Positions 3,575 to 42,704 of a stretch of 64,000 bases of DNA are shown here, one piece after another. The stretch is from Bacteroidales bacterium (GTDB lineage Bacteria; Bacteroidota; Bacteroidia; Bacteroidales; Paludibacteraceae). The notes beneath the pieces were generated by a model. It did no database searches and was not told the DNA's origin. It was given only the letters and a program-made list of their open reading frames with translations. The stretch spans positions 1 through 64,000 of the forward strand of contig SUXC01000002.1 in assembly GCA_015061165.1 (NCBI GenBank), read 5' to 3'. Within the stretch, counting starts at the first letter, position 1; each line of letters opens with the position of its first letter. A program made the position numbers and the translations under genes.

Positions 3575-4312
3575 TTAAAATGGTATCACATCTATTGGCA
3601 ACTCAAGTCCTCGTTGCGCAATGTGAACGTATTTGCCTGTTAATAATTCAATTTCTTTCTTAAACCTGATTGGATCGGCGTTATTCTTTGAAAGGTGGAG
3701 GAGGATAATTCGGCTCACATCAGTTAGGTCTGTTGCTCGCAACATCTGTTTGCAATGCTCCAGGCTCATGTGAGATTCGAGGGTACGCTCTTCCAGTTTC
3801 TTAGGAATAATGCCTTTTTGGCAATTCTCTTGGAGGATTTGCAAGTCATAGTTACACTCAAGCATGATGATATTCAGTCCGTCAAATTGGTATTTCACAA
3901 AGTAGGTATCAGTTGCAAAGAGTAATGTTCCTATCTCCTCGTGTTTGACAAGGAATCCGAACGGCTCTGCGCAATCATGCTCGGTGTCAAATGGTCTGAC
4001 TGAAAATCCTCCAAAAGTAACTGTCCGTAGCGGAGTCATAGCAATTGGTCTGCGTTGCTTCTTAAAGCGAAACTCATCAATTGCGCCTTGACTGCAATAG
4101 CATGGGAAATATTTGAGATAATCCTCAACATATCTCATGTGGTCAAGGTGAGCATGGGAGATGAACACGCCAACGACCTTTCGTGTATTGAAATTTAGCG
4201 TTTCAAGAACTTCTTGAACATGGCAGCCCGCTTCAATCACAATAGCCTCTTGGTCATTTTGCAACACATAACAGTTGCCATGACTTCCACTATCAAGTAC
4301 AGTTAGTTTCAT
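3575..4312 (-). CDS. Metallo-beta-lactamase-fold hydrolase, probable nuclease
   Basis: This 245-residue protein has the metal-binding HxHxDH signature as SHAHLDH (about residues 52-58), a histidine in FDTEHDC, an aspartate in FATDT and a late histidine in LLHLSKNN, the usual order of an MBL fold. The N-terminus (LTVLDSGSHGNCYVL) resembles the YycJ/WalJ branch, which includes DNA exonucleases. It overlaps the RecT-like gene by 4 bp and lies beside a Rad50/SbcC-like ATPase, so it plausibly supplies the exonuclease that makes single strands for annealing, in place of the SbcD- or lambda-exo-type enzyme usual elsewhere. The fold is clear. The nuclease role is inference. Confidence 0.75.
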   Translation of the reverse strand: MKLTVLDSGSHGNCYVLQNDQEAIVIEAGCHVQEVLETLNFNTRKVVGVFISHAHLDHMRYVEDYLKYFPCYCSQGAIDEFRFKKQRRPIAMTPLRTVTFGGFSVRPFDTEHDCAEPFGFLVKHEEIGTLLFATDTYFVKYQFDGLNIIMLECNYDLQILQENCQKGIIPKKLEERTLESHMSLEHCKQMLRATDLTDVSRIILLHLSKNNADPIRFKKEIELLTGKYVHIAQRGLELPIDVIPF

Positions 4313-5153: not shown

Positions 5154-7112
5154 TTACTTTATAGTCAATTTCTGCCCTTGGATAACAGAAAGTGTGATCG
5201 TTTGAGTTTCAGAAGCTCGCATAACTGTTACGCTCTCCGTGTTATCCACGAATAGCGGCACCTGACACCCTAACGCCTTTGTGAGACCGTTGATGATGTC
5301 AATACCAGCATTGATACGAGTAGCAGTATTCTGCGTTTCGTATGGTACGCCGTCAATAATTGCTTGGCAAATCTCTTTCTCACCATCGTTGGTGAGATTT
5401 GGCTCGTACATTTTCCAACGCACGATTTCGAACAGCGAAGATACGCGGTCCTCAACGATGGATATTTTCTTTTTCTTAAACAGTCGTATCTCGTAATCTA
5501 CACGATCGCAATCTGCAACTGTTTGTGCAAGCGTCTTTGATTCTTCTTCCAAACGCGCTTTCTCCGCATCGATACGAGCATTTGTCTTCTCGGCAGCCAA
5601 TTTCTCGTTAATCTCACGAAGTTTGTTGTCTATCTGACGAATGTGCATTTGGAATGTTTGTGTCTTGGCATTGTACTCTGCAAGTACGGAAGATTGACTT
5701 GGTGTAGCAGACATAGCTTGCATAATCTCCTCGTGCTTTGCTTTCTGCTCTGCGTATTCGCTGACTTGTGCCAATACACTTTCGAGGGTAGGAACATTGC
5801 TGAGTTCGGCTGATATGGCATCAACCTTTTCAATCAGTTCGCGCTCTTCTTGCTCCAATGATTGAATACGAGCGTTCGCACTTTCGATTTCAGACTTGAT
5901 ACTATCAATGCGTTCCTTGAGTCGCTTTCCGTCATTCTCTATCTCTGCAAGACGCTTGAGTTTGCGCTCATTGAACGCCTTAATAGCATTTTCTTGCGCC
6001 TCTTGAACCTTGAACACAGGCAAATCTTGACCACATACAGGACAAGTTGTTTCAACTTCGTCCTTGTATGCTTCAATATTTTGCTTCTGCCACTCTTTTC
6101 CTGCTGCTGCGAGCAATCCCGCTTTTTCGTCTTTTTCTGCGCTCAAACGCGAGATTTTGGACATCTCAGAGGTTTTTTCGTACTGTACCTTGTTGAGTTC
6201 TGCCTTTGTAGCGTACAAACGGTTGTTAATCTCACCTCTTTTGCTCTCAATCTCAACACGAGCATCATGCTCTAATCGTGCAATCTTTTGGTTGCACTCT
6301 GCAAGCAGACGAGGATACTCATTACTTGTCGTCTCTGGACGGTTGCCCAAATGCTCGGTGAGTAACGCATCAATTTCTGCGTGCTCTGTTTCCAAACGAA
6401 CCTTATCGCTTTCCAATGCTGCAAAATCAACATCTACGATACGCAAGCGTTCTTGTTGGTCTATACGAGCAGGAATCTGATCCAAATCGGTTTGAGCAGT
6501 TTTGCGTGTCAAACGATTTTGGCGAATCAACTCGTCCACAGACTTTCCGTCATAGAACGCCTTGATGATTGAAGGATAATCTTTGGCGATTTCATACTCG
6601 CTGATTTCGCCTGTGAGCAACTGCAATTTCTTTCTGCGGTCTTCCATCTTTAAGCCCATGAAAGCAGAGATAGAAGATAGCATGAACCATTCCTGAACAG
6701 GGCAGATCTTGCCCAACTTCTCATCGAAGTCACGCACGGAATAAGGTACGTCGTTGATAAACCTCTCTTGAGTGTTACCTTGTAAGATTGCTTCTAACTG
6801 ACCGCGTGGAACTGACCATTTCTCTTTCTGAACGCGCTTGACGGTCATCTTTGTTCCGTCAATATCTAATTCTAATTCCACAACGGTGTCCACTTTGTGA
6901 ACGACCTCATTGTCTTTGGTTAGTGGTTGAACTGGCAATTCCTTGCCCTCATAGTTCTTTCCGAACAGGCACCACAAATAAGCATCGTACACCGATGACT
7001 TGCCTGTGCCGTTATCTCCAGATATTTGGGTATAGCACCCAAAGTTTGCTTCAAGGTTTTTAATACCCTTGAAATTTGCGATTTTCATCGCTTTTAATTC
7101 GACTCTTGACAT
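5154..7112 (-). CDS. Rad50/SbcC-like AAA ATPase with zinc hook
   Basis: This 652-residue protein shows a Walker A motif SGDNGTGKSS (about residues 31-40) after IANFKGIKNLEA, long coiled coils on both sides of a central zinc-hook motif CPVCGQDLP (about 365), and a C-terminal Walker B-like segment PLFVDNTESV (about 625). This is the layout of Rad50/SbcC and RecF-type SMC-like ATPases, though shorter than host SbcC (over 1000 residues). An internal Met at residue 9 (7088) is an alternative start. It lies upstream of RecT, so it probably holds or processes DNA ends with the RecT and MBL-fold proteins. No SbcD-type nuclease is visible nearby. Confidence 0.85.
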   Translation of the reverse strand: MSRVELKAMKIANFKGIKNLEANFGCYTQISGDNGTGKSSVYDAYLWCLFGKNYEGKELPVQPLTKDNEVVHKVDTVVELELDIDGTKMTVKRVQKEKWSVPRGQLEAILQGNTQERFINDVPYSVRDFDEKLGKICPVQEWFMLSSISAFMGLKMEDRRKKLQLLTGEISEYEIAKDYPSIIKAFYDGKSVDELIRQNRLTRKTAQTDLDQIPARIDQQERLRIVDVDFAALESDKVRLETEHAEIDALLTEHLGNRPETTSNEYPRLLAECNQKIARLEHDARVEIESKRGEINNRLYATKAELNKVQYEKTSEMSKISRLSAEKDEKAGLLAAAGKEWQKQNIEAYKDEVETTCPVCGQDLPVFKVQEAQENAIKAFNERKLKRLAEIENDGKRLKERIDSIKSEIESANARIQSLEQEERELIEKVDAISAELSNVPTLESVLAQVSEYAEQKAKHEEIMQAMSATPSQSSVLAEYNAKTQTFQMHIRQIDNKLREINEKLAAEKTNARIDAEKARLEEESKTLAQTVADCDRVDYEIRLFKKKKISIVEDRVSSLFEIVRWKMYEPNLTNDGEKEICQAIIDGVPYETQNTATRINAGIDIINGLTKALGCQVPLFVDNTESVTVMRASETQTITLSVIQGQKLTIK

Positions 7113-8106: not shown

Positions 8107-8436
8107 ATGGCTAATTTATCTTTAATCAAAACCTTAATGAGAGAGAAAAAAATCACTTATGGTATGCTCTCAAAGATGACTGGATTGACCGCTCAAGGGG
8201 TGTGTCAGATGATGAAGGCTAATAAAGCCATGACTGACAATTTGGAGTTGATTGCACATGCTCTTGGCGTACCTGTAGGTTATTTCTTCGAAGAAACGCC
8301 TGCCAAAACATCTCATTCAGATAATAGTGTTTCTGTACCACGAGAGGTGCTTGAAATGTTGGCAGAAAAAGACAAACAGTTACGAGAGAAAGATGCTATC
8401 ATAGCCCGATTGACTGAGCGATTGATAGGTAAGTAA
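8107..8436 (+). CDS. XRE-family phage repressor
   Basis: This 109-residue protein has an N-terminal Cro/CI helix-turn-helix (about residues 5-60: ITYGMLSKMTGLTAQGVCQM, then AHALGVPVGYFFE) and a C-terminal coiled coil (about 78-109: LAEKDKQLREKDAIIARLTE) that would dimerise it. It lacks the peptidase domain of lambda CI. It is the only plus-strand gene between the two leftward gene blocks and is preceded by a promoter and the tandem repeat at 8054-8089, so it is the likely lysogeny regulator. Its stop codon region (AACCTTT, 8435-8441) is also one arm of the first structured unit of the adjacent non-coding cluster. Confidence 0.8.
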   Translation: MANLSLIKTLMREKKITYGMLSKMTGLTAQGVCQMMKANKAMTDNLELIAHALGVPVGYFFEETPAKTSHSDNSVSVPREVLEMLAEKDKQLREKDAIIARLTERLIGK

Positions 8437-8592
8437 CCTTTTCCGAAATCATGTAGTATCTCTATATGGGGACGATTGGCAGTCGTCGTGTAAGACTCGA
8501 CGCACGATGAAATCATCCATGTGAAGGATGATGAAGACATGCGTCGAGTCAATCTAAGACGCTTCTAAATGAAATAGACTTCCTCAAAGGTT
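8435..8592. ncRNA. Structured array unit 1 (left cluster, divergent)
   Basis: A closing helix AACCTTT/AAAGGTT (8435-8441 with 8586-8592) surrounds a two-tier hairpin: an 11-bp outer stem GACTCGACGCA/TGCGTCGAGTC (8494-8504 with 8540-8550) and an inner stem ATCATCC/GGATGAT (8512-8518 with 8526-8532). A small side hairpin GACGA/TCGTC lies at 8471-8487. The 9-mer ATGAAATAG at 8569-8577 recurs in unit 2. Spacing is looser than in units 2, 3 and 5. No coding frame explains the stretch. The transcribed strand is unresolved. Minus would be co-directional with the RT operon. Confidence 0.6.
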
Positions 8593-8612
8593 GTGCATAC
8601 TATTGCTAATAA

Positions 8613-8744
8613 GGCGATTTTGCACGGCGGTTTTCTCTGTACTCATTCGATTGATAGAATCTAATTAAGATGCGCCTCTGTAGTCATACAGAGAGGGGCA
8701 TCATATATCGGATTCTATTATGAAATAGTCATGCACCAATCGCC
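8613..8744. ncRNA. Structured array unit 2 (left cluster)
   Basis: The closing helix is GGCGATT/AATCGCC (8613-8619 with 8738-8744) plus TGCA/TGCA (8621-8624 with 8732-8735). The apical compound hairpin has outer stem ATAGAATC/GATTCTAT (8654-8661 with 8711-8718), middle stem GATGC/GCATC (8669-8673 with 8698-8702) and tip CCTCTGT/ACAGAGAGG with one bulge. Internal strands are 29 nt on the left and 13 nt on the right. ATGAAATAG follows the hairpin at 8720-8728, as in unit 1. TTGCA and GGTTTTC before the hairpin recur in unit 3. The unit ends exactly where unit 3 begins. Confidence 0.75.
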
Positions 8745-8881
8745 AACTGCAATTGCAAGCGTGGTTTTCCCTATATGTGTTTGATAGATGAAGCTATCAT
8801 AGAAGGTCCCGTAAAGAGAGACATCCTTAACGGGACCTTCTTATCATAGCTTTAATGAAAATTTGCTTGCCCATTGCAGTT
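8745..8881. ncRNA. Structured array unit 3 (left cluster)
   Basis: The closing helix is AACTGCAAT/ATTGCAGTT (8745-8753 with 8873-8881) plus GCAAGC/GCTTGC (8755-8760 with 8865-8870). The apical hairpin has outer stem AAGCTAT/ATAGCTT (8791-8797 with 8846-8852) and a perfect 12-bp inner stem AGAAGGTCCCGT/ACGGGACCTTCT (8801-8812 with 8830-8841) around a 17-nt loop. Internal strands are 30 and 12 nt. The left strand carries CCTATATGTGTTTGATA (8770-8786), a 17-mer that matches unit 5 at 13 positions without gaps. The stop of the downstream minus-strand gene lies 8 bp beyond. Confidence 0.75.
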
Positions 8882-8889
8882 ACTCACCC

Positions 8890-9042
8890 TTAAAACCCAG
8901 CCCTTAATCCCAAATGTTTCAGGACTTCTCTCAACTCACTATTTGTGTATTTCTCCGCAATCTCTCGCGACACACCATTATGGTTCATTGTGATCTCAAT
9001 AGCCCTTTGCTTTGAGATAGCAGGTTTCAATTTTCGTTTCAT
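8890..9042 (-). CDS. Small protein between RT-array genes (50 aa)
   Basis: This 50-residue frame starts MKRKLKPAISKQRAIEITM and ends VLKHLGLRAGF. It is basic and helical, with ISREIA-like spacing (NHNGVSREIAEKYTNSELRE) that could form a small helix-turn-helix. Its ATG lies 2 bp past the stop of the zinc-ribbon gene, so translation is probably coupled, and its stop lies 8 bp from array unit 3. I do not recognise it. Position ties it to the RT and array operon. Confidence 0.5.
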   Translation of the reverse strand: MKRKLKPAISKQRAIEITMNHNGVSREIAEKYTNSELREVLKHLGLRAGF

Positions 9043-9043
9043 A

Positions 9044-10201
9044 TCATTTTCGATTAGCGAGTTTCTTTTCTTTCCACTCTTTTTGCTTTGCCTCAATATC
9101 AATCTTGTTGTCAACGATGAGTTGCTTGAGCGCACCGAGCAAGTACCAGCCAGTCTCTTTTGCAGCCATGCTGTCTAACTTCTTGAGAGAAGCCTCTTTC
9201 GTCATTCGCTTACGGTTCTCAAAGAATACACAGCGATGGAAGCGTATGAGGTTCTGCATGCTAAAGAAAGCACCATAGCCTTTGTAGGCATCTTGCCACT
9301 CTTTGCATTGATGAGGGATGAATTGTTTTCTGTCCTCCAACTTCGATGGACTGCTGTATAAAGTAGGCATTACCATGACAAACGCCTTGACCGCATTGTA
9401 CAATGCTCGTGGTGTCGTGGCTTTCTGAATAGCCTCACGGTACATCTTGATAGCGCGGAATACTTGAGCAAACTCATTCAGATACAAGTATCCATAATCG
9501 CTATCTTTCTTGCCTTTCAAAATCTTCTCTGCACCACTATAGCAGATATAAGTCTCCCCAGTCTTCTTGTAGAGGTGTGTCTTGTGCGAGTGGAGCAACG
9601 ATTTCAATTGGTCAAAGTAGTCGTCAATCATTGCGATCGCAAGTTCCTTGTTGTACCAGCGGTTGTCCTCACGGAAGCACTTTGTATCTCCGTGCTTGAA
9701 CATTGATTCCTGACGACCCAACTCCTCTACGAGTACTCTCCAAGTGTAATCGTAGCCAAACATCTTCATGCGTTCGGTGTAGCTGCTCATATCGTAAGTA
9801 CCGTCTGGGCATTGTTTTGTAACATACTTGTTTAGTTTTCCGACGTAAGTGCGTGTCAAAAGCATTTTGAACATCTGAGCCAAGACATGTTGTTTGAACA
9901 AGTGCGAACTGCGGACATCGCCACCGCCCTTGATTTCAGTCACAACGCTATCAAGACGAATAGCGATAACTTGTCCTCCGTCTGGTTTTGTCATGGCAAA
10001 AAGGCTTGACACATCAATACCTGCGTCTTCGAGCTGCTTGATGCGATCAGCTGCTTTCTTGCTGTTGTTGGCAAGTGGCAACTCGATTACACCAAGTCCA
10101 CTATCTGCTCCGATAGTCAAACCGATGGTTACATGTTCTTGTTCACTAATTGCGATTTCTGCACCACATTTTGGGCAGACAACTTTTGTTGTTGGTTTCA
10201 T
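9044..10201 (-). CDS. Zinc-ribbon phage protein between the two RNA clusters (385 aa)
   Basis: This 385-residue protein starts with a possible half zinc ribbon (KVVCPKCGAEIAIS, Cys at about 9 and 12). No matching second CxxC follows, so the metal site may be incomplete or shared between subunits. The rest is helical and basic, with aromatic clusters (YLYLNEFAQVFRAIKMYREA, then IPHQCKEWQDAYKGYGAFF). There is no recognisable catalytic motif. It is on the RT strand between the structured clusters, so it may bind their RNA or the RT product, but that is inference from position. Confidence 0.65.
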   Translation of the reverse strand: MKPTTKVVCPKCGAEIAISEQEHVTIGLTIGADSGLGVIELPLANNSKKAADRIKQLEDAGIDVSSLFAMTKPDGGQVIAIRLDSVVTEIKGGGDVRSSHLFKQHVLAQMFKMLLTRTYVGKLNKYVTKQCPDGTYDMSSYTERMKMFGYDYTWRVLVEELGRQESMFKHGDTKCFREDNRWYNKELAIAMIDDYFDQLKSLLHSHKTHLYKKTGETYICYSGAEKILKGKKDSDYGYLYLNEFAQVFRAIKMYREAIQKATTPRALYNAVKAFVMVMPTLYSSPSKLEDRKQFIPHQCKEWQDAYKGYGAFFSMQNLIRFHRCVFFENRKRMTKEASLKKLDSMAAKETGWYLLGALKQLIVDNKIDIEAKQKEWKEKKLANRK

Positions 10202-10220
10202 AAGATTTTGTTTTTATTGG

Positions 10221-10652
10221 TTAAACATTACTCGTGTCTATCCACGAGCGTAAGATTACTAAATCGTAGTCGTTTGAGGAACGCCAAAACCATTTACCCA
10301 TAGTTTCTTCGTTCCATACAAACGAGCCGTTGATGATTGATTGTAGCACAAAATACTCAAGTTCAAATCGCGCTATATCTCTGTTCGGTCCGTATGTTTG
10401 ATCATCTTGCGACAATTCGTTATACTTGAGTGCCTTGAAGTATGGTCGAGACGGTTCGGTTGCAGACGGAATGGAGTGTTTGTAGTAGGAGTATAACTCC
10501 TCAATTTTCTCCAACACACTCTCTATGATCATCATTTCGCCCGAAGCAATATCAATCTGTTTCCGATTGACAACAAGCGTTCTTTCCTCAAGGTTGATTT
10601 TGTACGATGCGCCATTGGAAATGGCTTCTAAGATTTCTTCGTAAGTTTTCAT
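10221..10652 (-). CDS. Hypothetical protein downstream of the right RNA cluster (143 aa)
   Basis: I place the start at the ATG at 10652 (MKTYEEILEAISNGASYKIN), because the longer frame would need a TTG at 10685 close to the structured units. The N-terminal 45 residues look like a small beta-rich domain (ASYKINLEERTLVVNRKQID). The rest is helical, with YSYYKHSIPSATEPSRPYFK and WNEETMGKWFWRSSNDYD. I do not recognise the family. It is on the same strand as the RT, just after the right cluster. Confidence 0.55.
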   Translation of the reverse strand: MKTYEEILEAISNGASYKINLEERTLVVNRKQIDIASGEMMIIESVLEKIEELYSYYKHSIPSATEPSRPYFKALKYNELSQDDQTYGPNRDIARFELEYFVLQSIINGSFVWNEETMGKWFWRSSNDYDLVILRSWIDTSNV

Positions 10653-10689
10653 AAAAATGTTACTCTCAAAATGTTGTGGTATCAATGTA

Positions 10690-10800
10690 GGTGTTCGGTA
10701 TTTAGATGTAGTTTACCTGGAACGCTAACGCCGCAAATCTGCGGCGTACAGACTTCCACGGTAATACGCCATCTCAATCGAATGTACATTCCTTGATATA
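10690..10800. ncRNA. Structured array unit 6 (right cluster, short)
   Basis: A two-tier hairpin spans 10714-10763. The outer stem is TACCTGGAA with TTCCA-c-GGTA (9 bp with one bulged base, 10714-10722 with 10754-10763). The inner stem is ACGCCGCA/TGCGGCGT (10728-10735 with 10740-10747) around a 4-nt loop. A 12-bp palindrome GAATGTACATTC lies just right of it at 10780-10791. On the minus strand the palindrome places ACATTC before the hairpin, as units 4 and 5 have AACATTCAG and ATCATTCAG. No long closing helix is evident, so this is a reduced unit. Confidence 0.5.
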
Positions 10801-10970
10801 ACTTGCCTACCATAGCAATACAACTCAGTAGCGATGTGCGTTGGTGTAAGGATTTGATACTATCAGAATCAAATCACCAGTAAACTTCGAAACATCGAAG
10901 TAATACTGGTGAATGTGTTTCTGAATGTTAAATGGTGCTACATTGTTGCGATTGGTCGCACTACCAAAAG
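10801..10970. ncRNA. Structured array unit 4 (right cluster)
   Basis: An 8-bp hairpin GATTTGAT/ATCAAATC (10851-10858 with 10868-10875) abuts a two-tier hairpin: CACCAGTA/TACTGGTG (10875-10882 with 10904-10911) and ACTTCG/CGAAGT (10884-10889 with 10896-10901). A short outer pairing ACCAT/ATGGT (10809-10813 with 10932-10936) may close it. On the minus strand AACATTCAG precedes the hairpin and TATCAAATC follows it, the same flanking words in the same order as in unit 5. The closing helix is less certain than in units 2, 3 and 5. Confidence 0.55.
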
Positions 10971-10974
10971 AGAA

Positions 10975-11156
10975 GATTGGTGGTTGCTATAGCGCATGCC
11001 TATACAGGTTTGATTGTATGATCAGGGGTCCTGTCTAAACAGCCTCCAACGGTAGAGGAGGCTGGTTAAACAGGTTAGAGAACAGTGTATCCAGATGCCA
11101 ATCTGGATAACACTGTGCGGAACCTGATCATGCTGAATGATAAGCAACTTCCAATC
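10975..11156. ncRNA. Structured array unit 5 (right cluster, branched)
   Basis: The closing helix is GATTGG/CCAATC (10975-10980 with 11151-11156) plus GTTGCT/AGCAAC (10983-10988 with 11143-11148). The apical domain is a three-way junction. P1 is ATGATCAGG/CCTGATCAT (11018-11026 with 11123-11131). One arm is CCTGT/ACAGG then CAGCCTCC/GGAGGCTG (11030-11074). The other is a 15-bp stem with one bulge, ACAGTGT/ACACTGT then ATCCAGAT/ATCTGGAT (11082-11116). Internal strands are 29 and 11 nt, as in units 2 and 3. The left strand holds CCTATACAGGTTTGATT (10999-11015), matching unit 3. Confidence 0.8.
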
Positions 11157-11160
11157 AGTC

Positions 11161-11174
11161 GTGATGCGCATCAC
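11161..11174. repeat. Perfect 14-bp palindrome at the RT 3' end
   Basis: GTGATGCGCATCAC is a perfect palindrome lying between the RT stop codon (11181) and the closing helix of unit 5. It could mark the edge of the RNA cluster as a hairpin or be a protein-binding site. Confidence 0.4.
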
Positions 11175-11180
11175 ATTGTT

Positions 11181-12452
11181 CTACATGTGCAAGCGAATGA
11201 TTGTGTTGTACACGCCTTTGCTTGTGTGCAAATTCTTCTGCATACAAGTGATAGTGTAATACCCTTTGAGTTCGGGTATCTTCTGCTTGTTTGCTTTCAC
11301 ATTCTTGCCTGTTCCTCTTGCGATACAGCCGTCTTTTTGTTCACGGACATATCCAAGTCCACCAACTTTCTTTCTGCCTGTCTGAACGGCTCGTAGGCAG
11401 TCCATGACAAAGCCATTAAGCACTATCACATCGTGAGGAACATTGATTGTCCTCAATACTCGTGTAGCCCAAGAAAAATCGTTGAACCCTTTGTAGAGTC
11501 CTCGATAGACTGCATGGAGTGCGCTTTCATACGATACATCGCGTTTCTTGATAGTCGCCTCTTCAATCATCTTTTGGAACTTCTTAATACCTGTACTCGA
11601 TAGTGATATATCTGCGCCTTTGATTGAGAAACCAAGGAACTTTACCCAATGGTCTTTGTCAATGTACTCAACCTTTTTCGGATTCAGTCTCATGGACATC
11701 TCGTTTATGCCGTCTGCCAAGCCGCACATGGCTTTTTGGTAGTCATTGCCAGCGAAGATAATATCGTCCGAGTATCGTATGTAGATACCGTCCATGCTTG
11801 ATAATTTCTCATCTACATCAAATAGTACCACATCCGCCAGCCAAGCAGCTACCGCACACCCTTGCTTGAGTGATTGGTATTTCTGTTGCAGTTGATTGTT
11901 TTCGTCAAAGTAGTAGTCGCAATGGTAGTAGTTACGCACGACATCTATCAACGCAGACTTGCCGTACTTGCGTTCAACCGCATCAAAGGCAGCGTCAATA
12001 TACTCAATCGGAACACTATCGAAATACTTGCTCAAGTCGGCTTTGAAACCAACCCTTCCTGCGTAAGACTCGCACACTACAATCTCGCGGCTAAGTTGTT
12101 GTACGATCTTGCCACATGATATGCCCTTCTGATACGATTTGCATGACTTGTGTATCATCTCAGGCATGAGTTCAAAGAGCAGGTCATTGACCAGCGATAG
12201 CAGAACACGGTCTTTCGGCTCATTGACATACACGGTTCGAAAAGTTCCGTCATCTTTAGGTATTTGTGCCGTATGCGGTGGTACGATAGTATATCGCCCA
12301 TCACGGATAGCCAGGTACATAGCCACTCGTGTATCGTCTTCGCACAATTCACGAATATCCTTTTTGCAGATACCCTTTCCGATACCCTTTTCCAATGCTC
12401 TTTCCCAACGACTTTTGTCGGAAAACGCCATTTCTATAATTTTATCTTCCAT
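11181..12452 (-). CDS. Reverse transcriptase associated with a structured RNA array (not the DGR enzyme)
   Basis: This 423-residue protein has RT motifs in order: FKADLSKYFDSV with the first catalytic Asp at 139, LKQGCAVAAWLADVVL (195-210), RYSDDIIFAG with YSDD at 227-230, and LNPKK then VKFLGFSI (256-277). The N-terminal 100 residues (VPPHTAQIPKDDGTFRTVYV) and a C-terminal thumb-like region (about 300-423) complete it. There is no maturase, endonuclease or HNH domain and no intron around it, so it is not a group II intron RT, and it lacks the LPIGN motif of DGR enzymes. It overlaps an upstream small gene by 19 bp. The right RNA cluster begins 24 bp after its stop. I recall similar RTs in Bacteroides phages with no known function. 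The RNA units are the obvious candidate templates or cofactors. Confidence 0.85.
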   Translation of the reverse strand: MEDKIIEMAFSDKSRWERALEKGIGKGICKKDIRELCEDDTRVAMYLAIRDGRYTIVPPHTAQIPKDDGTFRTVYVNEPKDRVLLSLVNDLLFELMPEMIHKSCKSYQKGISCGKIVQQLSREIVVCESYAGRVGFKADLSKYFDSVPIEYIDAAFDAVERKYGKSALIDVVRNYYHCDYYFDENNQLQQKYQSLKQGCAVAAWLADVVLFDVDEKLSSMDGIYIRYSDDIIFAGNDYQKAMCGLADGINEMSMRLNPKKVEYIDKDHWVKFLGFSIKGADISLSSTGIKKFQKMIEEATIKKRDVSYESALHAVYRGLYKGFNDFSWATRVLRTINVPHDVIVLNGFVMDCLRAVQTGRKKVGGLGYVREQKDGCIARGTGKNVKANKQKIPELKGYYTITCMQKNLHTSKGVYNTIIRLHM

Positions 12453-14524: not shown

Positions 14525-14805
14525 TGCATAGCCTCCTTTAAGTATTTATTTGCTGCTTTCCAATACTTTTGTGGTACTCCGTGGAGGTATTTCACAATCT
14601 CGTGAGCGCAGCTCCACTCATTGAGCGCGACCTCGAATACCACAAACTCTACAAGTTTCTCATTCATCTCGTTTGACAAGATAAATGTACCTTTGCCTAA
14701 GCACCCTTCGTCTATGGTGTGCATTTGTCCACCCTCAGAAGTGTATTTTTGTATCAATCGTTCTACATCTTCGACCGACACTCTGTATCTTACTCCTGCC
14801 TTCAT
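14521..14805 (-). CDS. Hypothetical phage protein (94 aa)
   Basis: This 94-residue protein begins MKAGVRYRVSVEDVERLIQK and has a beta-rich middle (GCLGKGTFILSNEMNEKLVE). It overlaps the methyltransferase gene end by 4 bp and the next gene by 4 bp, so it is part of a tightly coupled run. Function unknown. Confidence 0.45.
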   Translation of the reverse strand: MKAGVRYRVSVEDVERLIQKYTSEGGQMHTIDEGCLGKGTFILSNEMNEKLVEFVVFEVALNEWSCAHEIVKYLHGVPQKYWKAANKYLKEAMQ

Positions 14806-16274
14806 GATTTCTTGTGTTGTTTAGGCAGCTGCCAACCTTTCACGCTTGCAACTGCTTGGTTAAACTTGTACCACACATTCTCATCTACAAACTCGAAGTG
14901 CATAGTGCCTTTCTTGTAGCCACGGATACGGAAGAAACTCCATTTTCGTATGGTATTACCGTCTTTATCTGTAACGATGTTTGTCCAATCATACCATTGT
15001 CCCCAAAGCAAATTGTTTTGTCGGGCAAATGTGTACAAGTCAGTAATATCGCTATAATCTCTACCAGTTAAAAAGCAGAGTGCTTTCATCACATCGTCTA
15101 TACGACCTGTGCCATTATAGGCTATGTCGATATGCCAATTTGTACGAGGAAAGTCCTTGTCGTATCTTGTTACACACGGCATGATAAATCGCTTGTTTAT
15201 CATGTAGTCAGAATTGGTTTTCCATTTCTCGCCTGCTGTAGAGTTTTCGGCTGATAGAGAGCAGATGTAATCAAATGCCTCTACGAGTGTTTGTTTTATT
15301 CGTTCCTCGTGAGTAGCAACGAGCATTTGCGCCATTCGGTAGATGTTTTTCATTGTGAAAGGCATATCGCTCGCAAGTTCAATCGCTCTATTCAGGTCAT
15401 CAATAACCTTTCGCGTTACATACTTCTCCATGCCAAATTGATTGAATACATGTCGCCACAGAGACTTCTGCAAGGTCTTTTTGAACACATCTCGTGTGAT
15501 AGCACCGCTTGAATAACTGTTTACATCTTGCACTTTTCGTGCGCCAAAGACGATAGGTTGTACTCCCATGCTGTTGCATAGCTCGTTCATGCGGTTATTG
15601 CCCTCTATGACTGTGTCAAACAGTTCGACTGCGTCCTTGTACTTGCTCACAATGTCTTGCACATAACTGTATCGCACAATGCCTTGTGTGTTTGGCTCAT
15701 CATCTTCCGTCATGTCGAAGAAGTCGTCAAACTCATGTTCGCCAGTTCGTGGCTTATACAAGCGTATCACGGACACATCAACACTCGTTTGTCGTTCAGC
15801 AGTCTTGAATACCTCTCCAAGGCATTGGCTATTGCCGTTATTGTCTATGAGTTCTCGTATCTTCTCGCGCCTCTCGTAATAGTTGCGAGAGAGCAGAGAA
15901 GAGTTGCACAAACTGATGATTTCACAGCCCTCTGGCGCAACATCCCAGGCATGTAGTATGTGCGCTTCTTCGGCAGAGAATGGTGGGTTCATCACAATCA
16001 TGTCAATATGGCTAATCATATCGGGTGTAACTGTGAGGAAATCGCTCGCGATCAGTTCGCATTTACCTGCAATAATCGCCTGCAATTTCGTATTGATTTC
16101 GCAGGCGATCACTTTCTTTGCTCCGTTCCTTTGCAGGAAATCTACGATATTGCCACTTCCTGCTGATGGTTCAAGAATGATTTTTCCTCGTATATCCGAG
16201 AGTGAGAGCATTTGCTCAATCACTTCGTGAGGCGTGGGATAGAAATCCCGATTGAATAGGTTTTGAAAGTCCAT
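14802..16274 (-). CDS. N6-adenine DNA methyltransferase-like protein with DUF4942-type C-terminus
   Basis: This 490-residue protein opens with RDFYPTPHEVIEQML, then SAM-binding motif I as LEPSAGSGNIVDFL (about 34-47) and catalytic motif IV as MNPPF (about 93-97), the pattern of type I-like N6-adenine methyltransferases. The C-terminal 300 residues (NSYSSGAITRDVFKKTLQKS and TNWHIDIAYNGTGRIDDVMK) match my memory of DUF4942, common in phage and mobile-element proteins. It probably methylates phage DNA against host restriction. No cognate nuclease is adjacent, so it is likely an orphan. The methyltransferase core is clear, the target unknown. Confidence 0.75.
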   Translation of the reverse strand: MDFQNLFNRDFYPTPHEVIEQMLSLSDIRGKIILEPSAGSGNIVDFLQRNGAKKVIACEINTKLQAIIAGKCELIASDFLTVTPDMISHIDMIVMNPPFSAEEAHILHAWDVAPEGCEIISLCNSSLLSRNYYERREKIRELIDNNGNSQCLGEVFKTAERQTSVDVSVIRLYKPRTGEHEFDDFFDMTEDDEPNTQGIVRYSYVQDIVSKYKDAVELFDTVIEGNNRMNELCNSMGVQPIVFGARKVQDVNSYSSGAITRDVFKKTLQKSLWRHVFNQFGMEKYVTRKVIDDLNRAIELASDMPFTMKNIYRMAQMLVATHEERIKQTLVEAFDYICSLSAENSTAGEKWKTNSDYMINKRFIMPCVTRYDKDFPRTNWHIDIAYNGTGRIDDVMKALCFLTGRDYSDITDLYTFARQNNLLWGQWYDWTNIVTDKDGNTIRKWSFFRIRGYKKGTMHFEFVDENVWYKFNQAVASVKGWQLPKQHKKS

Positions 16275-16278
16275 GATG

Positions 16279-16530
16279 TTATAATTGAGAGTAAATTTTT
16301 TCGGTTAGTTTCTTGCATTTGGCGTATTTCCTATCCTCTGGCGGTCTATACTGGTATTGCTCCTCTTTTAAGAGTGCAAGCAGCACAGTCTTCGGTAATA
16401 ACCAATTGTCCTCGTATTGAGAGTGGTCGGTCATGTCTTCTTTGATGACTCGCTCAAGGTTTTTCCTCATGTGTCTGCCAACTATTTGTATCAGTTGTCG
16501 AGTTCTCTTGCGCAATTCTTTCTTTGTCAT
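16279..16530 (-). CDS. Hypothetical phage protein (83 aa)
   Basis: This 83-residue basic helical protein (MTKKELRKRTRQLIQIVGRH, then WLLPKTVLLALLKEEQYQYR) overlaps the upstream gene by 4 bp and lies 4 bp before the methyltransferase gene. The operon setting suggests co-expression with the methyltransferase. Function unknown. Confidence 0.5.
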   Translation of the reverse strand: MTKKELRKRTRQLIQIVGRHMRKNLERVIKEDMTDHSQYEDNWLLPKTVLLALLKEEQYQYRPPEDRKYAKCKKLTEKIYSQL

Positions 16531-18164
16531 ACGGCTAACAATTTTTTGAGTTCATCTTCTTTGGTTTTTGGGAATACCCAGCCTGCCCCGCAGGACAATT
16601 TGGGATTGAAACGACCTCCCAATTTCTTGAGTTCGTCCTTAATCGCTTTCGTGTCGCCCAGCACAACAATAGCACGCTCAGAATATGGGATAATCTGAAA
16701 GTCGCCATTGATTGGCTCTTGTGGCTCGTTTTTGGGTGTTTGTTCGACATAGAATGACACATTATGTGCTACCCAATATCGAATACTACCAAAGTCGATG
16801 TAGCGATTGTAGTTGAAATGTTCGAACTCAGGTCGGTCATGCAAGCGATACATTGTATCTTCGCAATTCTCTTTGGTAATGCCCAACTCAGCAAGCACTT
16901 CATCGGCTTTCTTATAGGCTTTCTCGCTTACTTCTCGTGATAACTCTACATCGCCACGAGTTGCGTTTTTACCCATTGTGAAATCGGCAAAGTCCGAGAA
17001 CTCTTGTCGCTCATAGCCTGTGCTATCATTCATACCGTCAAAGTACTCGTGACCATGCTCAAAGAGTACCAAATCGGTCTTCTCACGGAACTCTTTTTCG
17101 GTCATCTCGTCCACCCATGAGAGGGTATAGGACGCACCCCAACCGTCATTTTTCTTTAGCGAGAACTTCACGCCAGGGAACGCGGATCTGCACATGGCGA
17201 GTATGTTCGATTTGCGTGCGTTGTTCGTTTTCAGACATGCGGTTTTGTATGCCTTGTATTCGGGCGATTTGCGGTTGTAGGTCTTTTGGTATATCCCCCA
17301 CAATCGTCTTTCTTCCTCAACAAGCGGATTGACATCGGTCATCAAGTGCTGCCATTTCTTGCAGAGTGTTTGATAGGCTTTGTATCGTTCTGCTTTCTCC
17401 TCTGCTGCAATTCGCTCTTCTTCCATTTTGCGCGCTTTCTCTCGTTCGTGTATGATTTCCACCTCAGTAGCAAACATCTCTCGCCAGTTCGCTGGCATAT
17501 AGATGTAGCGGGCATAATTGTAGCCCTCCGAACTTATCAGAAACCATTTGCCGTTATCGGTATTCACGACAACAGTACCAACTGTAAAGAATGTGGCAAG
17601 TTGCTCTTTGGTCGGGTTGTACTCGTCATAATCTGCGACATCTACATCATCAGATTGCGAGCCGTATTTCTCAAAGTCTTGCGGTTGATTTCTCACGAGT
17701 TCGTCCGCGAGTTCTTTGCGTGAAAAGTCCTTGCTTGTAACCTCGATCACGTGCATAACATTGCACAGTCGTTTACTCTCATTGTACAGCAGCAGGTCGT
17801 TGATTTCTCCGTAGGCACCATCGCCGCCGTCTTGTTTCATGCCCGAATTACTGCACCACACGAAATCGCCAAATTGTGGCACTCCCTGATGCGCATCTGC
17901 CATACGAGCATAATGAGCGAAATATGTTTGCTCAAACCACTTTCTTTTTTGCTCGATTTGTTCACGCGCCATTTGTTCGTACATGGCTGTTTGTTGTTCG
18001 CCATAGGTATGCACAAAGGCTGCTCGATTGAGTGGGGACATTGCTCCAAGCGCACCAAAGCTGCCGTATTGTTCGCCCATTGTGTACTCCCAGCCGTTTT
18101 TCAGTTCGTCCGTGGTCAAGATACGCTCTATCTCGTTCACGATTTTGGTAATGTTTGCTTCCAT
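16527..18164 (-). CDS. Large polyvalent phage protein (LPD29-type)
   Basis: From the ATG at 18162-18164 this is 545 residues. A longer frame would overrun the upstream gene. The region around ILAMCRSAFPGVKFSLKKND to SYTLSWVDEMTEKEF matches the LPD29 domain of polyvalent proteins, which are multi-domain proteins carried by phages and conjugative elements and thought to travel with the DNA. The C-terminus has GGRFNPKLSCGAGWVFPKTK, a small module seen at the ends of ArdC-type and similar proteins. A charged coiled coil precedes LPD29. Such proteins are often linked to anti-defence roles, which is inference here. Confidence 0.6.
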   Translation of the reverse strand: MEANITKIVNEIERILTTDELKNGWEYTMGEQYGSFGALGAMSPLNRAAFVHTYGEQQTAMYEQMAREQIEQKRKWFEQTYFAHYARMADAHQGVPQFGDFVWCSNSGMKQDGGDGAYGEINDLLLYNESKRLCNVMHVIEVTSKDFSRKELADELVRNQPQDFEKYGSQSDDVDVADYDEYNPTKEQLATFFTVGTVVVNTDNGKWFLISSEGYNYARYIYMPANWREMFATEVEIIHEREKARKMEEERIAAEEKAERYKAYQTLCKKWQHLMTDVNPLVEEERRLWGIYQKTYNRKSPEYKAYKTACLKTNNARKSNILAMCRSAFPGVKFSLKKNDGWGASYTLSWVDEMTEKEFREKTDLVLFEHGHEYFDGMNDSTGYERQEFSDFADFTMGKNATRGDVELSREVSEKAYKKADEVLAELGITKENCEDTMYRLHDRPEFEHFNYNRYIDFGSIRYWVAHNVSFYVEQTPKNEPQEPINGDFQIIPYSERAIVVLGDTKAIKDELKKLGGRFNPKLSCGAGWVFPKTKEDELKKLLAV

Positions 18165-18183
18165 ATTGTTTGTGTTTTTGAGG

Positions 18184-18546
18184 TTAGTAGCACATTGCAT
18201 TTATAACATCTTCCATGCAGTCTTCTCCGAGCATGCCCGACCATTCAAATGGGTTGAAATAATCATTTTCGCAATCCTCGTCTTCGTGAGCATGTTTGTC
18301 CTTTAATTCTTGCGGAATGTTGTCATCGTCCAGTTGTTCTGTTGCATACGCAAAGAATAACTTGTCGTATCGTTTTCCGAGTAATCCCTCGCACTCATCC
18401 GCAAGATCGCGGGAGCGAAAGTCGTTTTCCAATTTGAGTTCTTGCAGTTGCGTAATTGTTCCGTGCAAGTTTTCTTCGGCTTCAGCCGTAGAGATTGTGC
18501 AAGCAGTTGCTATAGCAGCAATCAGTATCTGATAATCGTTATTCAT
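18184..18546 (-). CDS. Hypothetical acidic phage protein (120 aa)
   Basis: This 120-residue acidic protein (MNNDYQILIAAIATACTIST, ending MEDVINAMCY) has an Asp/Glu-rich C-terminal half with EDEDCENDYFNPFEWSGM. The strong negative charge could suggest DNA mimicry, but no known anti-restriction family is recognised. It is 9 bp from the next upstream gene on the same strand. Confidence 0.5.
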   Translation of the reverse strand: MNNDYQILIAAIATACTISTAEAEENLHGTITQLQELKLENDFRSRDLADECEGLLGKRYDKLFFAYATEQLDDDNIPQELKDKHAHEDEDCENDYFNPFEWSGMLGEDCMEDVINAMCY

Positions 18547-22840: not shown

Positions 22841-23965
22841 ATGGCAAAAAGTATTTTTGAATACAATCCTATTTTCAAGGAGGCTATGCAGCGCGTAAAA
22901 TTCCGTTTGGAAGCTGCATCTCAGGAGCATGTTAACATCTTCGGTCTGCCTTGGTACACAAAGCACTTCGTTATGGGTACCGTGCCTCATACCGAGAAGG
23001 ACTTTAAGACCATCTTGGGTAAGTTGCACCTCCCTGTAGCTGCTTCTACTATCAATGATCGTGCTGCTGAACCTCTCCGTATGAACCAAGGTTTTGAGGA
23101 CTTGAAGCAAACCATGTTCACTCATGCTCATGCCTATGAGATGACCACTGATGAGATTCTTGAACTCAAGAAGCTTGCTGATCTCGCAGAGAAGGAAGGA
23201 GACATTGCAGCTGTCGATTACATCGCTGATGAGTTGATGAATCAGTTGCGTTGTGCAGTTGAGGGCGTTGATGCTCGTTTGGATATTATTATCCTCGGTG
23301 CGCTCTCTAACAAGGGTAAATTTACCTTCACGGCAGATAACGACCCAGGTTCACCATTCGTCGGTAAAACCATCGACTTTGGTATGAAAGCCTCTAACTG
23401 CGCCGAGGTAGGTACTGGTAATGAGTGGGTAACTGAGAACTTGAGTAAGGTTGACCCAATCGTTGAGATTGAGGATGTTCTTGCTCGCCAACGCCGCAAG
23501 ATCAAAAAGATTCTCACCGACATCAATACCGTGCGCTTCATTCAACGTACTGCTGCAATGAAGGGTTATGTGAACTCAGTTCAGTACCCTAACCAACCAG
23601 TTAGCTTGGGTGCTCTCAACCGTTGGATGGCGGATAACCAATATCCAGTATTTGAGATCGTTGAGCGCGAGGTAGGTATCCAACGCAACGGCAAAATCGA
23701 CACATTCGTACCATTCAAGGCTGGTCAGATGGTTTTCTTGCCAGAGGAGCAAATCGGTACTATTGAGACCTGCTTGAGTCCTGCACAGCAAGGAGTGAAG
23801 AGTGACGGTGTTAAGTATTCTTACCACGGTCGCACCGAGGTTCGTCGATTCACGCAAGGCGAGAAGGAGAATAGCGATTATCGCGAAATCACTAAGGCTT
23901 CGTTGATTGCTGCTCCATCTATGAACACAATCGATAGCATTTTGACTCTTGACACCACGAAGTAA
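22841..23965 (+). CDS. Major capsid protein
   Basis: This 374-residue protein is preceded by a good ribosome site (AAAAGGAGGA). It carries ITNDR-like features common to HK97-fold capsids: a helical spine segment (ELMNQLRCAVEGVDARLDII), then beta segments, and a C-terminal domain with FVPFKAGQMVFLPEEQIGTI. The family may be the lambda gpE type (phage_cap_E), where C-terminal sequences of this kind occur. Position between scaffold-like and connector genes supports the role. Length is normal for an HK97-fold capsid (300-400). Confidence 0.7.
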   Translation: MAKSIFEYNPIFKEAMQRVKFRLEAASQEHVNIFGLPWYTKHFVMGTVPHTEKDFKTILGKLHLPVAASTINDRAAEPLRMNQGFEDLKQTMFTHAHAYEMTTDEILELKKLADLAEKEGDIAAVDYIADELMNQLRCAVEGVDARLDIIILGALSNKGKFTFTADNDPGSPFVGKTIDFGMKASNCAEVGTGNEWVTENLSKVDPIVEIEDVLARQRRKIKKILTDINTVRFIQRTAAMKGYVNSVQYPNQPVSLGALNRWMADNQYPVFEIVEREVGIQRNGKIDTFVPFKAGQMVFLPEEQIGTIETCLSPAQQGVKSDGVKYSYHGRTEVRRFTQGEKENSDYREITKASLIAAPSMNTIDSILTLDTTK

Positions 23966-41312: not shown

Positions 41313-42704
41313 ATGCAGCAAGTTACACCTACAGAGAATCTTGACGACCACAGTACTCTGCCCACGAGCAACACGTGGACGTGTGAGCAGAACAATACTA
41401 ACAACGCGTACAACGTAGTGCCCTCATCGGGACAGGTGAACAACAACAATAAGAACAACAGTTACGCGGTGTTTGCGGTTGCCGAATCAGATAGACTATT
41501 ACGAGAATTATTCAACGCAGAGGGTGATTGTTATAAAAACAAGAAAATGCGTTTCGACGCAGCAAGATTCCATTTTCATCTTGCAGAGATCTTTGAATTA
41601 CATCAATCTATATGGACTGAATCCTATACGCCAACAACAAGCATTTGCTTTATTCTCACGTATCCGAGATATAGAGAAGTGTTTGCTGCCAAGTATCGCG
41701 ACAGGGTTGTACATCACCTCGTTGCTCCGTTTATCCTAAAGGTAACGGAAGCGGTACACAAGCACAACGGAAACATCAGCCACGGCAACCGTCCACGGTT
41801 GTCGGCACAAACAGCAGCCGAACAGATACAGCGCAATATGCGTGATTATCCTAACGGAGTAGTGGCTACGATGGACGTTAGCGGATTCTTTATGAATATC
41901 TGCCGCGATATGGCTTATGAGGTATTCGTTAAGTTCTGCGACAAATTCCGCCCTGACGGGTATTCTGATAGTCAGATACAGCAAATGTTGTGGATATTAT
42001 ATACACTTATCCACCACGATCCGACAAGCGATTGTGTACGCAATAGCCCAATAAGTATGTGGGACTTGATTGCAGCGCATAAGTCTATATTCAATGCCAA
42101 CGGGAAAGGGTTGCCGATAGGTAATTTCTATTCGCAACTAATCGCCAATTTGGTATTGTCGGTATGGGGCAGAGCGATTATAGATTTAGGGCTTGATTGC
42201 CGAATAACGCAGTTTGTAGATGATATGTGTGTCGTTGCTGCCAACGCAAAGATAGTAGGCATAATCCGCAAAGAATCGGAGCGCATACTATCAGAAATGC
42301 ACCTTACACTACACCCTACAAAATACTATATTCAGCCTGTCCGTCACGGAGTACAGTTCTGTGGTCGTGTGATATTTGCCAATAGAATGTATATCAATAA
42401 CAGGACGGTACGCGCATGTAAGAATAGTATCAAGCAGGCGATTAAGGCGGGAGCGAATATCAAGAACGCCAAAAGACTACTGAATAGTTATAACTCATAC
42501 ATTGGCTTTATGTGCCATATGCAGTCGTACAAGATTCAATATCAGTTAATGAAAATGATACTTGATAGTCCATATAACGAGTTCTTGTATTTCGAGGAGA
42601 AGAAAAATCAGTTGGTATGCAAGATGTTTGACATGTACAAGCCACATCAACAACATCTGCAAGAGATTAGGGATTTGAAACGATATTACAAACTAACATC
42701 ATAA
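41313..42704 (+). CDS. DGR reverse transcriptase
   Basis: RT motifs are in order: VVATMDVSGFF (183-193), GLPIGNFYSQLIANLVL (266-282) with the DGR-type LPIGN-SQ, and QFVDDMCVV (300-308) with FVDD at 301-304. A core start near ESDRLLRELFNAEGD (about 58) resembles known DGR RTs. The ATG at 41313 makes a 463-residue protein whose first 57 residues are encoded through the template repeat in the same frame as the VR. Whether this extension is translated is open. There is no good Shine-Dalgarno at 41313, and no ATG until MRFDAARF (residue 79). Confidence 0.85.
   Translation: MQQVTPTENLDDHSTLPTSNTWTCEQNNTNNAYNVVPSSGQVNNNNKNNSYAVFAVAESDRLLRELFNAEGDCYKNKKMRFDAARFHFHLAEIFELHQSIWTESYTPTTSICFILTYPRYREVFAAKYRDRVVHHLVAPFILKVTEAVHKHNGNISHGNRPRLSAQTAAEQIQRNMRDYPNGVVATMDVSGFFMNICRDMAYEVFVKFCDKFRPDGYSDSQIQQMLWILYTLIHHDPTSDCVRNSPISMWDLIAAHKSIFNANGKGLPIGNFYSQLIANLVLSVWGRAIIDLGLDCRITQFVDDMCVVAANAKIVGIIRKESERILSEMHLTLHPTKYYIQPVRHGVQFCGRVIFANRMYINNRTVRACKNSIKQAIKAGANIKNAKRLLNSYNSYIGFMCHMQSYKIQYQLMKMILDSPYNEFLYFEEKKNQLVCKMFDMYKPHQQHLQEIRDLKRYYKLTS
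41348..41484 (+). repeat. DGR template repeat (TR), inside the RT frame
   Basis: This 137-bp Asn-codon-rich template (AAC/AAT; protein NNNNKNN-type segments) lies 699 bp downstream of the VR. It is in frame with the RT and stays open. 15 of its A positions are substituted in the VR. The adenine-rich codons are typical of TRs. Confidence 0.95.

What the first reader, a model, noticed from the sequence alone, without database searches (positions are those of the whole stretch)
8435..12452. Second reverse transcriptase flanked by two clusters of structured non-coding units
A complete RT (YSDD, 423 residues, 11181-12452 minus) is followed by two non-coding clusters (10690-11156 and 8435-8881) with three compound hairpin units each, on either side of three co-directional genes. 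Retrons have one msr/msd RNA, usually upstream of or overlapping the RT. DGRs have one template with a mutated copy. Known DRTs have at most one compact RNA. I know of none with repeated units in two clusters downstream. The RT lacks the DGR LPIGN motif and intron features. The units are candidate templates, cofactors or regulators. The sequence shows the RT and the hairpins. The functional link is inference from proximity and shared strand.
Basis: partly seen in the sequence, partly recalled or inferred. Interest (0 to 1): 0.95.

Follow-up and report, generated by a model that had tools for sequence, protein, structure and literature searches.

The report
Phage reverse transcriptase with RNA arrays
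A phage region carries a reverse-transcriptase gene of the little-studied group UG27, followed by rows of differing, roughly 170-base units predicted to fold into knotted RNAs, a layout found again in most related loci examined; the units likely act as RNA partners or templates of the enzyme in a predicted anti-phage system, whereas the studied relatives read about here use a single RNA.

Summary
The RT (11181-12452, minus) is UG27 (PADLOC E 7e-196); the next two genes are its catalogued partners RTas346 and RTas337. Both non-coding clusters are strongly structured (z -9.0 and -8.3). In relatives the stretch just 3' of the RT holds a head-to-tail array of ~170-nt units: profile hits in 66 of 70 non-redundant loci, two or more in 61, hits behind RTas337 in 31; all 510 hits lie on the RT strand. 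Units share one architecture: a 5' hairpin whose loop pairs with the unit's own 3' tail (pseudoknot, 99% of cells paired, two-sided changes at 5 of 5 pairs, 150 units) around a long hairpin that differs between units. 127 of 131 units match a unit of another locus better than their neighbours: ordered sets of different RNAs. The window's cluster 1 meets the exact geometry three times; cluster 2 fits less well. Best reading: cognate RNA cofactors/templates of a phage-borne DRT-type system. No transcript, cDNA or defence was tested; tests for DRT2-, DRT9- and DRT10-type templates gave no clear support.

The parts
11181..12452 (-). UG27 reverse transcriptase, 423 aa, YSDD
   Evidence: PADLOC RT_UG27 E 7.3e-196, next best UG26 1.9e-34, Drt9 7.9e-23, UG17 3e-22; Pfam RVT_1 4.9e-18
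10653..11180 (-). array cluster 1: three head-to-tail pseudoknotted units
   Evidence: z -8.97; strict geometry scan; R2 hits 10845-10966 and 10988-11190
10990..11180 (-). cluster 1 unit 1: H1 GTGA-TGCGCA-TCAC (hit from 11175), box TATAG at 11004, tail TGCGC at 10996
   Evidence: boundaries approximate
10834..10989 (-). cluster 1 unit 2: H1 TTGGT-AGTGCG-ACCAA from 10967, tail CGCAC at 10840
   Evidence: boundaries approximate
10675..10833 (-). cluster 1 unit 3: H1 TTGCT-ATGGTA-GGCAA from 10818, tail TACCA at 10681
   Evidence: boundaries approximate
10221..10652 (-). RTas346 partner protein (ORF listed to 10685; ATG at 10652 fits the homologues); fused to the RT in 13 related loci
   Evidence: PADLOC RTas346 E 9.6e-44; alignment; fusions
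9044..10201 (-). RTas337 partner protein, no known fold found
   Evidence: PADLOC RTas337 E 1.2e-69
8890..9042 (-). 50-aa ORF between RTas337 and cluster 2 (part of the 81-aa GTG ORF 8890-9135)
   Evidence: found in 2 of 118 stretches only, the window and L001, whose RT is identical
8437..8889 (-). array cluster 2: three compound hairpins, probable divergent units
   Evidence: z -8.26; R2 8768-8965 E 0.13; same position as hits behind RTas337 in relatives
8791..8852 (-). cluster 2 hairpin 1
8654..8718 (-). cluster 2 hairpin 2
8494..8550 (-). cluster 2 hairpin 3

Best explanation
The window holds a UG27 reverse-transcriptase operon in which the RT gene is followed by tandem arrays of different ~170-nt units that belong to a family with one covarying pseudoknot architecture and that likely serve as the RT's cognate RNA cofactors and templates in a predicted anti-phage (DRT-type) system. 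Shown: the operon order, the arrays, their strand, the pseudoknot covariation in relatives, and the conservation of unit order. Inferred: the array is transcribed with the RT and folds into a string of RNAs; each unit docks one RT (with RTas346, which is fused to the RT in 13 loci) through the shared core (5' hairpin-tail pseudoknot plus the boxes UUCAAU, AUAUCRA and UAAAG). Inferred: the single-stranded stretch between the long hairpin and the pseudoknot lies at the active site as template, while the unit-specific hairpin is a structural mark of each unit, since its stems change by compensating pairs. Inferred: the resulting RT-RNA-cDNA assembly acts with RTas337 against competing phages.
For: RT identity and partners. 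Synteny: RTas337 in 72 of 72 non-redundant loci, no other co-oriented neighbour family above 23 of 72. Units in 66 of 70 loci, 510 of 510 hits on the RT strand (hits up to E 1). Pseudoknot 99.0% of cells paired, 5' hairpin 91%, outer stem of the long hairpin 80%; covariation score 0.677 against 0.205 shuffled and 0.05-0.13 slid; the pseudoknot was not part of the model used to align. Units under 75% alike: own loop and tail fit in 105 of 110, loop with another unit's tail 45%. In L028, with gene order 346-337-RT, weak R2 hits (E 0.005) lie behind the RT. Wobble pairs in the pseudoknot are G-U 19 against A-C 4, as expected of RNA from the RT strand. The RT's nearest models after UG27 and UG26 are Drt9 and UG17; UG17 is DRT10 (PMC12632851), and Class 2 systems studied so far rely on a cis-encoded template ncRNA (PMC13174585, passage).
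Against: No transcript, RNA binding or cDNA evidence. That UG27 belongs to Class 2 was not tested. No template identified: the DRT10-type A-B-A' repeat is not clearly enriched in non-redundant units (43 of 114 with a repeat of 4 or more, null 36.2 +/- 4.6), no poly-U (TTTT in 5 and 2 of 114), no DRT2-type endless frame on the cDNA strand (34 of 150, null 38.2 +/- 3.2; the sense strand shows a small excess, 51 against 42.9 +/- 3.2, and 19 against 12.8 +/- 3.1 for a wider segment). Over all stems G-U (77) exceeds A-C (53) only modestly. Four of the 70 loci had no profile hit (L110, L072, L067, L113); L067 then gave E 6e-5 with R2, the other three nothing below E 0.08. The window's own units score weakly. 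Defence is inferred from the family label.
Confidence: 0.6

Rival explanations
1. The arrays are mRNA-level elements of the operon (attenuators, processing or stability elements, translation control of RTas346) and are not bound by the RT.
For: They lie in the same orientation directly before RTas346 in most loci.
Against: In L028 the units are behind the RT, the last of the three genes; hits lie behind RTas337 in 31 of 70 loci; the array stays beside the RT when RTas346 is fused to it (L046, L048, L052, L062); up to eight ordered, different units are more than control of one gene needs; the tail patterns occurred only on UG27 contigs in the viral collection.
Confidence: 0.15
2. Each unit is a telomerase-like template as in DRT10, giving a different tandem-repeat cDNA per unit.
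For: [quoted passage not shown] over all 150 units longest direct repeats there are slightly above a column shuffle (z 2.4).
Against: Not clearly enriched once related units are removed (43 against 36.2 +/- 4.6); the stretch has nearly invariant letters (TA.AG), unlike the poorly conserved DRT10 template loop (PMC12632851).
Confidence: 0.12
3. The units act as DNA: folded single strands or inverted repeats serving recombination, replication or protein binding of the phage.
For: Some hairpins are very long and near-perfect (L067); arrays are exchanged between loci; an SbcC-like gene is near in the window.
Against: Fixed orientation and position relative to the RT; G-U 19 against A-C 4 in the pseudoknot; a loop-tail pseudoknot is an RNA-type fold.
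Confidence: 0.06
4. The system is a retron with repeated msr/msd.
For: RT plus structured RNA in phages.
Against: UG27 model 649 bits against 34.7 for the best retron model among the 25 of 61 rows shown and 49.5 for NCBI's retron St85 (cut-off 235); the units are downstream of the RT.
Confidence: 0.02

Closest known systems
DRT9 (UG28) and DRT10 (UG17), Class 2 UG reverse transcriptases
   Same: Nearest RT models after UG27/UG26; structured RNA encoded beside the RT, 137 nt in DRT10; in DRT9 the RNA is scaffold and template (PMC12483538, PMC12632851).
   Different: One RNA per system there; here up to eight profile hits in the first cluster plus further ones behind RTas337. No poly-U, no clear A-B-A', no SLATT partner seen; partners are RTas346 and RTas337.
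DRT2
   Same: Pseudoknotted RNA; a poorly conserved middle between conserved flanks (PMC12039810, passages).
   Different: One 280-nt RNA; here ~170-nt units whose middle is a covarying hairpin; no excess of endless frames on the cDNA strand.
DRT3
   Same: RT with ncRNA in a multi-component complex; 6:6:6 complex reported (PMC13213688).
   Different: Two RTs and one ncRNA there; one RT and many units here.
UG27 as catalogued in PADLOC-DB (RT_UG27 + RTas346 + RTas337)
   Same: Same three proteins.

Membership tests
UG27 RT system | RT matches RT_UG27 best | tested here: met
   E 7.3e-196 over residues 1-420 of 423
UG27 RT system | partner genes RTas346 and RTas337 | tested here: met
   E 9.6e-44 and 1.2e-69
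Class 2 DRT with ncRNA | conserved structured RNA encoded in cis | tested here: met
   covariation in relatives; transcription itself not tested
Class 2 DRT with ncRNA | one ncRNA per system, as in the studied members read about | tested here: not met
   two or more profile hits in 61 of 70 loci
Class 2 DRT with ncRNA | RT falls in the Class 2 clade | not tested
   no tree was built; nearest models only
Class 2 DRT with ncRNA | ncRNA-templated cDNA | not testable with these tools
   needs RT assay or DNA sequencing
DRT (any) | protects against phages | not testable with these tools
   only the family label and the phage location
DRT9 | conserved poly-uridine template | tested here: not met
   TTTT in the two single-stranded stretches of 5 and 2 of 114 non-redundant units; loops of the long hairpin not examined
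DRT10 | A-B-A' pattern in template loop | tested here: inconclusive
   z 2.4 on 150 units, 43 against 36.2 +/- 4.6 on 114 non-redundant units; template loop not known here
DRT10 | SLATT-domain partner | tested here: not met
   no SLATT among ten proteins of the window around the RT in Pfam (E to 0.1) or PADLOC (E to 0.01)
DRT2 | cDNA concatemer forming an endless reading frame | tested here: inconclusive
   cDNA strand 34 of 150 against 38.2 +/- 3.2; sense 51 against 42.9 +/- 3.2; mononucleotide shuffle, template limits unknown
retron | RT of a retron family | tested here: not met
   NCBI retron St85 49.5 bits, cut-off 235; best PADLOC retron shown 34.7 bits against UG27 649.1
group II intron maturase | TIGR04416 above cut-off | tested here: not met
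   85.7 bits, cut-off 300
diversity-generating retroelement | template and variable repeat with adenine-directed mismatches | not tested
   RT assigned to UG27; no search for a TR/VR pair was made for this RT

The most novel reading that the evidence does not exclude
UG27 loci encode an ordered set of different guide-like RNAs for one reverse transcriptase: each array position has its own RNA with a shared RT-docking pseudoknot core and its own hairpin, conserved by position across phages, so that one operon builds a multi-RNA, multi-RT ribonucleoprotein (or a panel of different cDNAs) instead of the single-RNA machine of the studied DRTs.
Probability: 0.3. Interest if true: 0.92.

Novelty: new variant of a known kind. 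Interest (0 to 1): 0.8.

Why it matters
The ncRNA-using DRTs described in the papers read (DRT2, 3, 9, 10) work with one RNA. A relative with ordered arrays of different RNAs would show a new way to organise reverse transcription in phage conflict, raises the question of what several different RNAs do for one polymerase, and gives a covariance model, a pseudoknot that can be broken and rejoined, and an isolated phage (BS-TP1) in which the RT is annotated as a tail protein and the 1.35 kb behind it is blank.

Tried and rejected

Literature: 'UG27' with 'reverse transcriptase' returned 5 papers, all unrelated by title and abstract; searches for ncRNA arrays, tandem or multiple ncRNAs with RT, and UG RTs in Bacteroidales prophages listed no description of this (listings are capped). 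The UG/Abi catalogue paper (10.1093/nar/gkac467) is not held and was recalled, not read; it or other subscription papers may mention RNAs of UG27. Seen: PMC12632851 abstract, introduction, first of three parts of Results, section 8, discussion and passages; PMC13213688 first of two parts; passages of PMC12039810, PMC12483538, PMC13174585, PMC8934634; other papers only in listings. That UG28 is DRT9 is recalled.

Selections: seed alignment A2 used 31 units (of 86 distinct candidates 49 had the right length, 31 of these were given). A3 took the best 150 of 195 R1 matches from 60 of 117 loci. One search used 70 loci (RT at most 95% alike, partner gene behind the RT, window left out); its orthology count used 131 of 150 units, and the loci there were not thinned. 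Geometry scan of 114 loci, slightly wider than the one used on the window: 178 hits in arrays (98.7 kb), 27 in the 1.5 kb after RTas337, 14 elsewhere on the RT strand, 6 on the other strand of 1.73 Mb; 32 of 114 loci had none in the array.
Full report
What is there. The minus strand of the window reads: RT (12452-11181), a 528-nt non-coding stretch (11180-10653), RTas346 (10652-10221), RTas337 (10201-9044), a 50-aa ORF (9042-8890), a second non-coding stretch (8889-8437), then a convergent helix-turn-helix gene on the plus strand (8107-8436). The RT matches the PADLOC model RT_UG27 with E 7.3e-196; the two next genes match RTas346 and RTas337, which PADLOC labels DRT. So the proteins are a catalogued group that no held paper found by my searches studies. 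The two non-coding stretches fold far better than dinucleotide shuffles, z -8.97 and -8.26. The region is phage: a major head protein lies at 22841-23965, and a viral contig carries the identical RT (L001).

Relatives. Scans with the RT and with an alignment of 21 sequences gave 117 loci from viral contigs and from Bacteroidales genomes (the lists are capped at 80 per call). In 111 of 118 stretches (window included) a partner gene follows the RT, with a gap of 29 to 2965 nt, median 867. RTas337 occurs in 72 of 72 loci that are at most 95% alike in the RT; no other co-oriented neighbour family exceeds 23 of 72. In 13 loci RTas346 is fused to the RT, and units then lie between the fused gene and RTas337 (L046, L048, L052, L062) and behind RTas337. 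In L028 the order is 346-337-RT, and weak unit hits (E 0.005) lie behind the RT. The system is rare in genomes: 2 of 120 relatives and 3 of 393 genomes of the order at E 1e-60, the window's own genome counted in both.

The unit. Gaps in relatives hold head-to-tail units with a median end-to-end spacing of 172 nt. Aligning 31 units, and then 150 units found with a covariance model, shows: a 5' hairpin H1 of about 4 bp with a 6-nt loop (AGCACA); a box TTCAAGG; a box TTcAAT; a long compound hairpin H2; a box ATATCRA; a box TAAAG; and, three nucleotides on, the tail TGTGC. Loop letters 2-6 of H1 pair with the tail: in 31 units 100% of cells are paired, with changes on both sides at all five pairs; in 150 units 99.0%. 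The whole structure scores 0.677 for covariation against 0.205 +/- 0.007 after shuffling and 0.05-0.13 after sliding. The model used to align (R1) did not contain the pseudoknot. Among units less than 75% alike, 105 of 110 loops fit their own tail while 45% fit another unit's tail. Pseudoknot wobbles are G-U 19 and A-C 4 of 732 cells, pointing to RNA of the RT strand, although over all stems the difference is small, 77 to 53.

Specificity. A nucleotide profile from the 150 units finds 510 places in the loci up to E 1, all 510 on the RT strand; all but five lie in the gap after the RT or downstream of RTas337. Among 70 non-redundant loci 62 have hits in the first cluster, 49 two or more; 31 have hits behind RTas337, 18 two or more; 66 have any. 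Of the four without, L067 is found by the covariance model R2 (E 6e-5); L110, L072 and L113 are not. Two exact tail patterns searched in the whole viral collection returned six stretches, all on contigs already found by the RT; the patterns were written from these arrays, so this speaks for absence elsewhere, not for sensitivity. RTas346 and RTas337 of BS-TP1 are confirmed.

Units are different from one another and ordered. Of 131 units, 127 resemble a unit of another locus more than any unit of their own (mean best identity 0.76 against 0.51), and 86 of 125 best partners above 55% identity sit at the same ordinal place; loci were not thinned there, and relatedness adds to this. Arrays often differ by about one unit (L012 351 nt and L013 512 nt; L004 700 nt and L005 859 nt), though L007 and L008 differ by 95 nt. 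Arrays are exchanged: L039 and L095 have RT genes 77% identical, while windows along the array run at 95-100% and along downstream genes at 88-99%. In more distant pairs the array is less conserved than the RT (for example L063/L066, 59% and 74%). In six groups of orthologous units, two-sided changes occur at 11 of 18, 13 of 26, 11 of 21, 9 of 40, 16 of 24 and 3 of 49 predicted pairs over the whole unit. I read this as H2 being kept mainly for its shape.

The window's own units. They are divergent members. R1 over the whole window, the nucleotide profile and R2 over the whole genome miss them. R2 on 7 kb without filters ranks two cluster-1 units and the first cluster-2 unit on top, E 0.0056, 0.0083, 0.13, with a hit outside the clusters next at 0.16. 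A scan for the exact geometry (H1 of 4 bp or more, loop of 6, letters 2-6 Watson-Crick to a tail three nucleotides behind a TA[ACT]AN box, an AT[CT][AGT]A box upstream) gives three hits in both strands of 64 kb, namely the three cluster-1 units; simulated strands gave a mean of 0.42. The box pattern had been widened after inspecting these units, so the companion result matters: a slightly wider scan of 114 loci gave 178 hits in 98.7 kb of arrays and 6 on the other strand of 1.73 Mb. The nearest relatives L012 and L013 show two and three R2 hits behind the RT (the weakest at E 0.76) and hits behind RTas337 (E 5e-4 and 5e-6). Cluster 2 of the window has three compound hairpins and boxes in the right order but no clean pseudoknot under the strict rule.

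How it most likely works. UG27's nearest models after UG26 are Drt9 and UG17; UG17 is DRT10 (PMC12632851). In DRT9 the RT binds an RNA encoded beside it that is scaffold and template (PMC12483538, passage). By analogy each unit would dock an RT through the shared pseudoknot core, the conserved single-stranded stretch between H2 and the pseudoknot would lie at the active site, and the cDNA with RTas337 would act on invading phages. The docking, the template and the defence are inferences, and the class of UG27 was not tested by a tree. Tests for three known template logics gave no clear support: no poly-U, no clearly enriched A-B-A' repeat, no endless frame on the cDNA strand, with a small excess on the sense strand. 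The accessory proteins show no known fold in the searches made, so their role is open.

Verdict. A real, conserved feature: a catalogued RT group, unstudied in the papers found, that carries arrays of different pseudoknotted RNAs, a new variant of the ncRNA-using DRT kind. The link to the RT rests on position, strand, exclusivity and covariation, not on experiment.

Noticed in passing
window 41313-42704 (+): A second RT ORF of 463 aa; best PADLOC model is the generic RT (E 6e-19), then UG17 (8e-11); no clear group.
   Followed up: partly
window 5154-7112 (-): SbcC-like subunit of a palindrome-specific endonuclease (phrog_77, E 5e-56), with a metal-dependent hydrolase at 3575-4312 (phrog_392, E 4e-71).
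   Followed up: no
window 14802-16274 (-): DUF4942 protein with an N-terminal part that matches DNA-methyltransferase families; phrog_32703 E 9e-166.
   Followed up: no
L124 5001-6263 (PQ571274.1 79351-80613): UG27 RT of Bacteroides phage BS-TP1 is annotated 'tail protein'; the array behind it is unannotated.
   Followed up: yes
L044, L046, L048, L050, L051, L052, L054, L055, L058, L060, L062, L103, L107: RTas346 fused to the RT in one ORF.
   Followed up: partly
L067 9252-9869: Unusually long near-perfect GC-rich hairpins inside the units.
   Followed up: no
L039 / L095 near L039 9317-9467: Identity break inside unit 1: RT genes 77% identical, array windows 95-100%, downstream windows 88-99%.
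   Followed up: partly
window 16527-18200 (-): 557-aa protein with an LPD29 domain (Pfam E 1e-7) upstream of the operon.
   Followed up: no
window 8107-8436 (+): Helix-turn-helix regulator convergent with cluster 2; weak capH and RmrA matches.
   Followed up: no
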